From: Nanobdellota archaeon
Lineage (GTDB): Archaea > Nanobdellota > Nanobdellia > Pacearchaeales > GW2011-AR1
Assembly (NCBI GenBank): GCA_027858295.1
Contig: JAQICZ010000012.1
Coordinates: forward strand, 1-50,138
Direction: 5' to 3'
Length of the DNA stretch: 50,138 nt
Shown: positions 29,456-31,600 of the stretch, in pieces
Numbering within the stretch: position 1 is the first letter of the stretch
Layout: the number at the start of each line of letters is the position of its first letter
Made by a program: the position numbers and the translations under genes
The notes under the pieces: model-generated
Database searches by the model: none
Seen by the model: the letters and a program-made list of their open reading frames with translations, nothing else
Told to the model about the DNA's origin: nothing

Positions 29456-29610
29456 ACATAATATCAGAATTTAAAGAAGTTTTTGAGAAGCAAAAAATTG
29501 GGGAAAATTCAGCAGGAATTTTCCTCTAAATTCTTGTTAAATGACCCGAACGGAATGAAATGGAGTGAGAGCACAGTGGGGTCGTAGTAAAATCTTTGAT
29601 TTCACGGAGA
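29456..29610 (+). repeat. Type-B structured repeat, copy B4
   Basis: ACATAAT (29456) ATCAGAATTTAAAGAAGT...GGGGAAAATTCAGCAGGAATTTTCCTC...GTTAAAT (29536). Confidence 0.8.
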
Positions 29611-29620
29611 AATTTCTATT

Positions 29621-30142
29621 TTAGCTACTTAATGGGAACTTTGCATTAGGAAACTCTTTTTTGAAAAATGGAATGTGTCCTGTACCAGTTAAAATTAATA
29701 CAGTGTCTTTATCTGGAATTAAACTTTTAAGATTTGATTTCATTTCAAGTTCTCCTTGATTCCATTTTTCTAAATCAATAATTTTCTTACTAATTTTTGT
29801 CAATTTTTCATTTGGTTCAAAATTGTTAAATTTTTCCCAAGAATGTTGTTTAATTATTTTCTCTTGTAAAGCAATGATTTTGTTCTCGTTTTCAGACGAA
29901 ATTCCTTTTTTTATTGTATTTATATTTGAATCAAATCCTTTACAAGAAATATTGTTTTCTTTTGCTAAATTTAATGCAAAAATCATTTCTTTAGGATATT
30001 TAGAAATTTTGTTATGTTTAATATCTTCTTGACATATTTCAATTAATAATAATTTAGGATTTATATCTAAAATAATTCTTTTTAATTCATTTTCGTTAGT
30101 AAATCCACAATGTAAAGTTCCTATAAAAAAAATTTCTGTCAT
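29621..30142 (-). CDS. TraB/TIKI-superfamily-like protein
   Basis: FIGTLHCGFTNENELKRIILDINPKLLLIEIC ... VLILTGTGHIPFF. Confidence 0.5.
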   Translation of the reverse strand: MTEIFFIGTLHCGFTNENELKRIILDINPKLLLIEICQEDIKHNKISKYPKEMIFALNLAKENNISCKGFDSNINTIKKGISSENENKIIALQEKIIKQHSWEKFNNFEPNEKLTKISKKIIDLEKWNQGELEMKSNLKSLIPDKDTVLILTGTGHIPFFKKEFPNAKFPLSS

Positions 30143-30192
30143 AAATTTAATGAACTATTGACATATATAAAAGTAGCTAAAATAGAAATTAC

Positions 30193-30344
30193 GTTTAACA
30201 TCGGGGCTCGATGAAGTTCTTTGGAGTGTAACGGAAAAGAATTCGGGAAAACTTGGCAAAAGTTTTTTCTTTAATTATTGTTATGTCTCCCAATGATTGG
30301 AAGGAGGAGAGCGTAGCGTGGCAAAATCCTTTCATGATTTTGAG
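30193..30344 (+). repeat. Type-B structured repeat, copy B5
   Basis: GTTTAAC (30193) ATCGGGGCTCGATGAAGTTCTTTGGAGTGTAACGG...GTTATGT (30280)...GGAGGAGAGCGTAGCGTGGC. Confidence 0.85.
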
Positions 30345-30436
30345 TTCAGAATTCGGGCGCCCATCTTAATAACTAGTAACTAATTAGTAGCAACAGTCCG
30401 AAAACTTTATATGTGTCCAAGTAAACATAATAGTAT

Positions 30437-30805
30437 ATGAAAAGGAATATGCTCGCAACTATGGAACGATTAGAAATAGATGAGGGAATAAGAGGATTAG
30501 TTGGACAACTCTGGAAACATTGTTATAGAATAACAGATAGTTGCGAGGGTCATGGTTCAGAAGCATATATTATGTTTACTGGCGGAGATGGTTGGTTTGA
30601 GGAGAATGCTCAAAAATATAATCTCGGCAAAGTTGGAAATAAAGATTGTTGCGATAGAGAATTTCAAGATGAAGTTCGTAAATATGGATTAGATCCAAAG
30701 GATTTTGTAGATAGAAGAAAAACTTGTGGTTGCGGAGCAGGAGTAAATGGAAATTCTGTTTACAGAGGAAAATTGATACAAGATCCATTCAAGCCCGAAT
30801 TTTGA
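30437..30805 (+). CDS. Small Cys-containing protein of unknown function
   Basis: 122-aa ORF; CYRITDSCEGHG, DCCDREF, CGCGAG motifs. Confidence 0.65.
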   Translation: MKRNMLATMERLEIDEGIRGLVGQLWKHCYRITDSCEGHGSEAYIMFTGGDGWFEENAQKYNLGKVGNKDCCDREFQDEVRKYGLDPKDFVDRRKTCGCGAGVNGNSVYRGKLIQDPFKPEF

Positions 30806-30810
30806 ATTAG

Positions 30811-30940
30811 ACATAACATCGCTGGTAGAAGAAGTGCCGAAGGCATTTTCCCGAAGGGAGTAGTGAATGAAACGAACGGAGTTCTAGTCGCTGTTAAATG
30901 AGGGCGAAGCCCCTTGAGTTTTTAATTTTGGCGTTATAGA
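30811..30940 (+). repeat. Type-B structured repeat, copy B6 (more divergent core)
   Basis: ACATAAC (30811) ATCGCTGG...GAACGGAG...GTTAAAT (30893). Confidence 0.65.
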
Positions 30941-30949
30941 ATATTATTT

Positions 30950-31369
30950 TTATTGCTTGAATTCGTCTCTTAATTCCATCCATATATTTCCTAAAAGATT
31001 TTTACCATTTTTGTTTTCTCCCCATCCCCATTTTGCATCTCTCCAAGAATCTTCAATAATTTCTCTATTGCCAGATTGTAATAATTTTTTTAGGGCATAA
31101 GGATGTTGATTTATTTTATTTCTAAGAATTTTTTTCATTGTAGAAATTTCATCCCAATCTGAATCAACTATGTTATTATTTTCTATAGCTATTTTCTGAG
31201 CATCATGGGCTGACGAAGCATTTTTTATTTTTCCAAAAATATCAGTATTCTCTTTTTTGAATTTCATAGCTTGAAATGCATGTTCTGAAGTTGGAAAAAC
31301 AACTCTTTCATATTCTACTTGAAATAAAAAATATTTTATCTTCAGCTCCTGGCTGATTTGCTTGATCAT
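30950..31369 (-). CDS. NADAR (YbiA-like) family protein, possibly N-terminally truncated
   Basis: VVFPTSEHAFQAMKF, AKKA-like DAQKIAIENN, SWRDAKWGWGENKNGKNLLGNIWMELRDE. Confidence 0.85.
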   Translation of the reverse strand: MIKQISQELKIKYFLFQVEYERVVFPTSEHAFQAMKFKKENTDIFGKIKNASSAHDAQKIAIENNNIVDSDWDEISTMKKILRNKINQHPYALKKLLQSGNREIIEDSWRDAKWGWGENKNGKNLLGNIWMELRDEFKQ

Positions 31370-31447
31370 GCGATATTTGTTGTATCATAAAATTAAAAAA
31401 ATAATATATAATATAAAAGTTTCCATGTGAGCTAAAATAGAAATTAT

Positions 31448-31600
31448 GTTTAACATCGGGGTTTGATGAAGTCGTGTGTAGCACAATTTGGATTGGAGAA
31501 GTCTGCAAGACTTCGGAATCCCTAAATCCTTGTTATATCCTCCCGTTAGGGATTGATTTTTAGTGCAACGTTTCGAAGGAAGATTTTAGAGTTTTCGTAA
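31448..31600 (+). repeat. Type-B structured repeat, copy B7
   Basis: GTTTAAC (31448) ATCGGGGTTTGATGAAGTCGTGTGTAGCAC...GAAGTCTGCAAGACTTC...GTTATAT (31532). Confidence 0.85.

What the first reader, a model, noticed from the sequence alone, without database searches (positions are those of the whole stretch)
29536..31454. Heptamer after each gene matches the heptamer closing the previous repeat, as expected if each unit is a circularisable cassette
122-aa unit: closing heptamer region of B5 GTTATGTCT (30280-30288) is exactly the reverse complement of AGACATAAC (30809-30817) after the gene. TraB-like unit: GTTAAAT (29536) versus GTTTAAC (30193), 6/7. NADAR unit: GTTAAAT (30893) versus GTTTAAC (31448), 6/7. 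In integrons the R'' site of a cassette pairs with its own leading TTRRRY because attC is completed only in the circle. The pairing here is between the two ends of the same gene unit, not simply within one repeat. The U32, methyltransferase and epimerase units match less well.
Basis: partly seen in the sequence, partly recalled or inferred. Interest (0 to 1): 0.85.

Follow-up and report, generated by a model that had tools for sequence, protein, structure and literature searches.

The report
Archaeal gene cassettes with XerA-type integrases
The repeats are recombination sites of an integron-like gene-cassette array in a tiny archaeon, and across its class such arrays sit beside a different enzyme (a XerA-type recombinase lacking the domain that defines integron integrases), which suggests that gene capture of the integron kind has a second, widespread archaeal form.

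Summary
In the window alone the end-to-end complementarity is no better than chance (228 of 720 re-pairings do as well). In 49 gene units from other loci of the order and 49 from other orders of the class, the box after a gene matches the box before it over 9 bp: 3.84 and 4.84 of 6 variable positions against 2.56 and 2.99 in shuffles, 0 of 10,000 each. The two boxes of one repeat show no excess. An inner 11-bp stem pairs within each repeat. This is attC logic: the site is completed only in the excised circle. The array runs on the minus strand. Related arrays adjoin a tyrosine recombinase in canonical integron geometry, with a body-less attI-like site between. The enzyme is XerA-family, catalytically complete, and lacks the roughly 43-residue IntI-specific insertion; none of 382 genomes sampled has a true IntI. 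In the window's own genome the array-type integrases found are broken, so this array is probably frozen. Excision was not shown. New variant of a known kind.

The parts
28151..28245 (-). S1, attC-like site (boxes TTTTAAC 28151-28157 and GTTCATTTC 28237-28245); body belongs to the U32 gene unit
   Evidence: R1 match 68 bits, E 5e-19; boxes located
28276..29403 (+). gene of the U32 unit, 375 aa, weak Peptidase_U32 match; opposite to the array direction
   Evidence: Pfam PF01136 E 1.7e-5; unit ends match only 3/7
29454..29544 (-). S2, attC-like site (boxes AGACATAAT 29454-29462 and GTTAAATGA 29536-29544)
   Evidence: R1 match 61 bits; boxes
   Evidence: unit ends 6/7, 7/9
30191..30288 (-). S3, attC-like site (boxes ACGTTTAAC 30191-30199 and GTTATGTCT 30280-30288)
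   Evidence: R1 match 77 bits; boxes
30437..30805 (+). cassette gene, 122 aa, no Pfam family; opposite to the array direction
   Evidence: unit ends 9/9
30809..30901 (-). S4, attC-like site (boxes AGACATAAC 30809-30817 and GTTAAATGA 30893-30901)
   Evidence: R1 match 44.5 bits; boxes
30950..31369 (-). cassette gene, 139 aa, NADAR domain; TATA-like motif in leader
   Evidence: PF08719 E 8.7e-23; unit ends 6/7
31446..31540 (-). S5, attC-like site (boxes ATGTTTAAC 31446-31454 and GTTATATCC 31532-31540)
   Evidence: R1 match 66 bits; boxes
31660..32325 (-). cassette gene, 221 aa, SAM methyltransferase; TATA-like motif in leader
   Evidence: PF08241 E 3e-11; unit ends 5/7
32395..32489 (-). S6, attC-like site (boxes AAAACTAAC 32395-32403 and GTTCATTTT 32481-32489)
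   Evidence: R1 match 62.6 bits; boxes
32570..33262 (-). cassette gene, 230 aa, NAD-dependent epimerase
   Evidence: PF01370 E 1.1e-23; unit ends 4/7
33325..33419 (-). S7, attC-like site (boxes GAATATAAC 33325-33333 and GTTAAGTCT 33411-33419); integrase-proximal end of the array by polarity, but no integrase and no matching partner box found to its right
   Evidence: R1 match 69.6 bits; partner search
17152..17245 (-). isolated attC-like site of the same family
   Evidence: R1 match 54.7 bits, E 1e-14

Best explanation
The repeats are attC-type single-strand recombination sites and the genes between them are integron-like cassettes lying on the minus strand. Each cassette carries a leader box (GTT plus 6 variable bases) and, at its other end, the complementary box followed by a body with an internal 11-bp stem and a loop of about 54 nt. 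Excision would join the ends so that the two 9-bp boxes meet and the site folds into one hairpin (9-bp stem, 3/1-nt internal loop, 11-bp stem, loop). A XerA-family tyrosine recombinase without the IntI-specific domain most likely recognises this hairpin by shape and inserts cassettes beside its own gene at a body-less attI-like site, which in one branch carries a dif-like palindrome. Shown by sequence: box pairing across units, stem pairing within sites, geometry, attI-like site, missing domain, no true IntI in the genomes sampled. Inferred: circles, strand choice, catalysis by this enzyme, crossover at G^TT. In the window's genome the two array-type integrases found are broken, so this array is probably immobile now or depends on an enzyme from outside.
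For: Box pairing across units, 0 of 10,000 shuffles in two independent sets, none within a repeat; inner-stem pairing within the site with constant anatomy; recombinase 3' of the sites on the same strand in every linked locus of the order, in 7 of 20 replication loci chosen only for their sites and in further pairs; matching box plus a different sequence next to the integrase; one branch of the tree holds the array-linked enzymes; XerA model passed, IntI model failed, insertion absent; 0 of 382 genomes with IntI over the cut-off while 103 of 382 have sites; broken copies in this genome.
Against: No circle, junction or activity was observed. Linked loci in the order were picked because site and recombinase shared a contig, so only side and strand are unbiased there; 13 of 20 replication loci show no integrase in the stretch fetched. 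Two loci (L113, L122) have a further site on the other side of the integrase. One third of cassette genes oppose the array. All genomes are MAGs. The window's own pairing is not significant.
Confidence: 0.82

Rival explanations
1. Ordinary archaeal integron cassettes (CALINs) of the kind reported in 2022, moved by a true IntI acting in trans or living in other hosts; the XerA-type genes nearby are passengers or cargo.
For: attC arrays without IntI are common in archaea and bacteria, and archaeal attC sites are recombined by bacterial IntI1 (PMC9668308). The window array itself has no integrase.
Against: No IntI over the cut-off in 382 genomes, 103 of which have such sites. The XerA-type gene sits at one fixed end in one orientation with a box-matched, body-less site between, which a passenger would not do. 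The inner stem is mostly 11 uninterrupted pairs, unlike the bulged stem IntI is known to read.
Confidence: 0.1
2. The cassettes are moved by the chromosomal XerA of the host, and the array-type recombinases have another role.
For: The enzymes are close relatives; an intact XerA-like gene is on C3 of this genome.
Against: The C3-type genes have no sites beside them and fall outside the array branch.
Confidence: 0.05
3. The repeats are transcription or RNA elements (terminators, riboswitch-like hairpins) copied between genes, and the box pairing is a by-product of base composition or gene conversion.
For: The inner stem could form in RNA; the window alone shows no significant end pairing.
Against: No Rfam family at its gathering score. 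Shuffles that keep the boxes' own composition do not reach the observed pairing, which runs across the gene and ends sharply at base 9. Sites share one orientation while genes do not.
Confidence: 0.03

Closest known systems
Integrons of bacteria, and the archaeal integrons/CALINs of Ghaly et al. 2022 (PMC9668308)
   Same: Tandem gene cassettes separated by attC-type sites with RYYYAAC/GTTRRRY-like outer boxes, inner stems paired within the site, site completed only in the circle; integrase divergent from the array with an attI-like site between.
   Different: The adjacent recombinase is XerA-family without the IntI-specific domain; the outer box is 9 bp; the inner stem is mostly 11 uninterrupted pairs with a 3/1-nt spacer instead of a bulged stem with extrahelical bases (the latter from PMC3518468); many cassettes appear to carry their own TATA-like promoter; attI-like site with a dif-like palindrome in one branch.
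Archaeal XerA / bacterial XerC-XerD dif recombination
   Same: Same enzyme family (NF040815 over its cut-off; PaXerA 4a8e the best PDB sequence match); dif-like palindrome in some attI-like sites.
   Different: Works next to multi-site cassette arrays rather than on a single chromosomal site; array enzymes form a separate branch.
pdif modules moved by XerC/XerD in Acinetobacter (from general knowledge, not tested)
   Same: Gene modules bounded by Xer-type sites.
   Different: Those sites are double-stranded, conserved in sequence and in inverted pairs; here variable boxes pair per unit and all sites of an array point one way.

Membership tests
Integron (cassette array with IntI) | Clusters of at least two attC-type sites less than 4 kb apart | tested here: met
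   Seven sites within 5.3 kb in the window; arrays in many genomes. The standard HattCI/IntegronFinder models themselves could not be run.
Integron (cassette array with IntI) | Outer boxes complementary between the two ends of one cassette; inner arms complementary within the site | tested here: met
   boxes; inner arms
Integron (cassette array with IntI) | attI site and integrase gene at one end, integrase divergent from the cassettes | tested here: met
   In related loci; not in the window, which has no integrase
Integron (cassette array with IntI) | Integrase with the IntI-specific additional domain | tested here: not met
   60-61 residues between the K motif and PHxLRH against 104-105 in most IntI; below the TIGR02249 cut-off; 0 of 382 genomes over it
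Integron (cassette array with IntI) | Extrahelical bases in the folded attC | tested here: inconclusive
   Inner stem mostly uninterrupted with a constant 2-nt asymmetry of spacers; which bases are flipped out in the folded site is unknown
Integron (cassette array with IntI) | Excised circular cassettes and site-specific insertion at G^TT | not testable with these tools
   Needs reads or a recombination assay
XerA (archaeal Xer recombinase) | XerA sequence family with the full catalytic set | tested here: met
   NF040815 over the cut-off; catalytic Arg, Lys, His-x-x-Arg, His and Tyr invariant in 31 sequences
XerA (archaeal Xer recombinase) | Single chromosomal dif site as substrate | tested here: inconclusive
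   dif-like palindrome only in the attI-like site of one branch; chromosomal dif not sought

The most novel reading that the evidence does not exclude
A XerA-derived recombinase without the IntI-specific domain runs an integron-like cassette system throughout a class of DPANN archaea: a second kind of integron, in which a near-perfect folded hairpin and, in one branch, a dif-like attI replace the reading of extrahelical bases by the IntI domain.
Probability: 0.6. Interest if true: 0.9.

Novelty: new variant of a known kind. Interest (0 to 1): 0.8.

Why it matters
Surveys call a complete integron only when the integrase has the IntI-specific domain, so this system would be counted at most as orphan attC clusters. 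If it works as inferred, cassette capture is common in small-genome archaea (103 of 382 genomes sampled have such sites), uses an enzyme close to the chromosomal XerA, and offers a natural test of what the IntI domain is for and of how integrons could arise from Xer recombinases.

Tried and rejected
Rfam search of the window: nothing. Folding single sites in array context gave mostly weak energies, as expected if the outer stem needs the circle. Homologous cassettes, to see which body travels with the gene: only four pairs, uninformative. Named-genome scan with the integrase: mostly bacterial relatives, with only two weak site matches near them. Partner box to the right of S7: no match of 8/9 or better within 11 kb. 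Structure prediction (mean pLDDT 82, poorly placed C-terminus): best PDB matches are IntI4 and XerA about equally, so the fold does not decide the family. Defence-model census of cargo: mostly methyltransferase-like hits, no clear theme.

Full report
WHAT WAS CLAIMED AND WHETHER IT IS THERE. The heptamers quoted are at the stated coordinates. The window is one contig (C6) of a 1.35-Mb genome in 64 contigs. Seven repeats S1-S7 lie between 28.15 and 33.42 kb, all in one orientation, with another at 17152 and more on contigs C54, C47, C31 and C12. A pattern for the repeat core has a chance expectation of 0.01 per window and finds five of the seven.

WINDOW ALONE. The six units score 3, 6, 7, 6, 5 and 4 of 7. 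Over the six variable positions the sum is 18 against 16.2 on re-pairing, and 228 of 720 re-pairings do as well. Inside the window only the 122-aa unit (9/9) is striking, and the S3 box fits the S2 opening box as well.

THE TEST ELSEWHERE. A sequence-only model (R1) of the seven repeats found matches in 96 of 211 genomes of the order and in 103 of 382 genomes drawn evenly from the phylum, all of them in the same class. Stretches were fetched and boxes were called at each match without looking at partners. Same order without the window: 49 consecutive pairs, 3.84 of 6 variable positions against 2.56 (sd 0.16), 0 of 10,000; different units of the same array average 2.35. Other orders of the class: 49 pairs, 4.84 against 2.99 (sd 0.15), 0 of 10,000, 27 perfect 9-mers against 1.9. 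The two boxes of one repeat: 2.58 against 2.54 and 3.09 against 2.94. Matching covers GTT plus six bases and falls to background at base 10. Missed sites and loose box calls can only dilute these numbers.

ANATOMY. Between the boxes the inner arms pair with each other inside the same repeat and change together (for example GCGATTAAGAG/CTCTTAATCGC against GGATTTAGAG/CTCTAAATCC): scores 7.86 against 5.44 and 9.62 against 5.60 in shuffles; across the unit they do not pair. The commonest inner stem is 11 uninterrupted pairs, with 3 nt between box and stem on one side and 1 on the other, and a median loop of 54 nt. So the inner stem travels with the repeat and the outer stem forms only when the two ends of a unit meet. 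That is the logic of attC: in integrons the crossover is G^TT, the last bases of an array site come from the next cassette, and the folded bottom strand is used (PMC3518468).

DIRECTION. RYYYAAC...GTTRRRY reads the same on both strands. Read on the other strand this is the canonical layout, integrase divergent from the array. Between integrase and first gene there is a single box matching the first unit's other box (6 of 6 variable bases in ten loci, 5 of 6 in several more), followed not by the repeat body but by an attI-like sequence. In one branch this holds a palindrome with arms of 10-13 bp and mostly a 6-bp centre, 2-5 bp from the box, which resembles a Xer dif site; that it is the integrase binding site is inference. 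In the 20 replication loci, chosen only for their sites, 7 integrases were found, all with this geometry. Comparing the lists gives seven such pairs in other orders (G212:C21, G240:C3, G215:C3, G496:C12, G452:C22, G386:C43, G225:C13; G215:C3 and G386:C43 overlap the replication set). In the window the array therefore runs on the minus strand, four of six genes follow it (29621-30142, 30950-31369, 31660-32325, 32570-33262), and each repeat body belongs to the gene on its right. Over all loci 59 genes follow and 33 oppose the array (P 0.004); 40 of 49 leaders have a TATA-like motif against 21 in base-shuffled leaders, which suggests that many cassettes bring their own promoter.

THE ENZYME. The array-linked proteins tested, of about 280 residues, pass the curated XerA model and fail the integron-integrase model, with the catalytic residues invariant. 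Between the K motif and PHxLRH they have 60-61 residues where most IntI have 104-105, XerA 62-64 and XerC/D 66-70: the IntI-specific domain is absent. In a tree they and their relatives at contig ends form one branch (33 rows, support 82/93), apart from the C3-type XerA, IntI and XerC/D. No genome of 382 has an IntI over the cut-off. The family is large, with thousands of relatives; sources name Nanoarchaeota, Ca. Pacearchaeota and archaeon BMS3Abin17, and one window protein's best named relative is from Ca. Woesearchaeota. The organism is thus most likely a DPANN archaeon of the Nanoarchaeota group; no finer name was obtained.

THIS GENOME. C12 holds a recombinase of the array branch with stop codons behind two sites, and C54 a decayed copy behind one site and a GNAT gene. 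Their units still show 8-9-bp matching ends (GTTATACG/CGTATAAC, GTTATAATC/GATTATAAC, GTTAGTAGA/TCTACTAAC). The window array has no integrase. With a genome 88% complete an intact copy may be missing; as it stands the array looks like an orphan in decay, which fits its poor box matches.

KNOWN OR NEW. Archaeal integrons were reported in 75 MAGs of nine phyla with 539 attC sites but six IntIs, most being CALINs, and IntI was recognised by its extra domain (PMC9668308). A XerA-type integrase at cassette arrays was not found in the open papers searched (subscription papers and preprints were not covered), nor in the passages shown from the review of archaeal tyrosine recombinases PMC8371274. It works like an integron; by the IntI criterion it is not one. 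I file it as a new variant of a known kind. What remains unshown is recombination itself.

Noticed in passing
L273 (NZ_CP041688.1, Chryseobacterium plasmid) 4500-16783: The closest plasmid-borne bacterial recombinase (47% identity) is divergent from a run of small genes separated by AT-rich direct repeats of 42-74 nt, and a 282-nt direct repeat recurs four times downstream. It could be a Bacteroidota counterpart of the cassette array.
   Followed up: partly
window 27968-28005 and 28108-28133: Perfect inverted repeats GATTAATTTAGCCC/GGGCTAAATTAATC and AGATTCGACC/GGTCGAATCT just left of S1, at the distal end of the array; role unknown.
   Followed up: no
L021 8035-9442 (C3 of the same genome): The intact XerA-like gene overlaps an ORF on the same strand that may be a serine-recombinase-like protein (recognised by eye only); possible mobile element or chromosomal XerA locus.
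   Followed up: no
L112, L134, L138, L141, L166 and other fetched stretches: Many contigs of these MAGs begin or end within or just beside a repeat, so arrays break assemblies and are probably longer and more common than counted.
   Followed up: no
P0103: An integrase 74% identical to the query is filed by its source under Patescibacteria: transfer between domains or a misbinned contig.
   Followed up: no
window 44776 and 44866: Two near-identical stretches AGATTTAACGAAATTTTGTAT 90 bases apart, unrelated to the array as far as seen.
   Followed up: no
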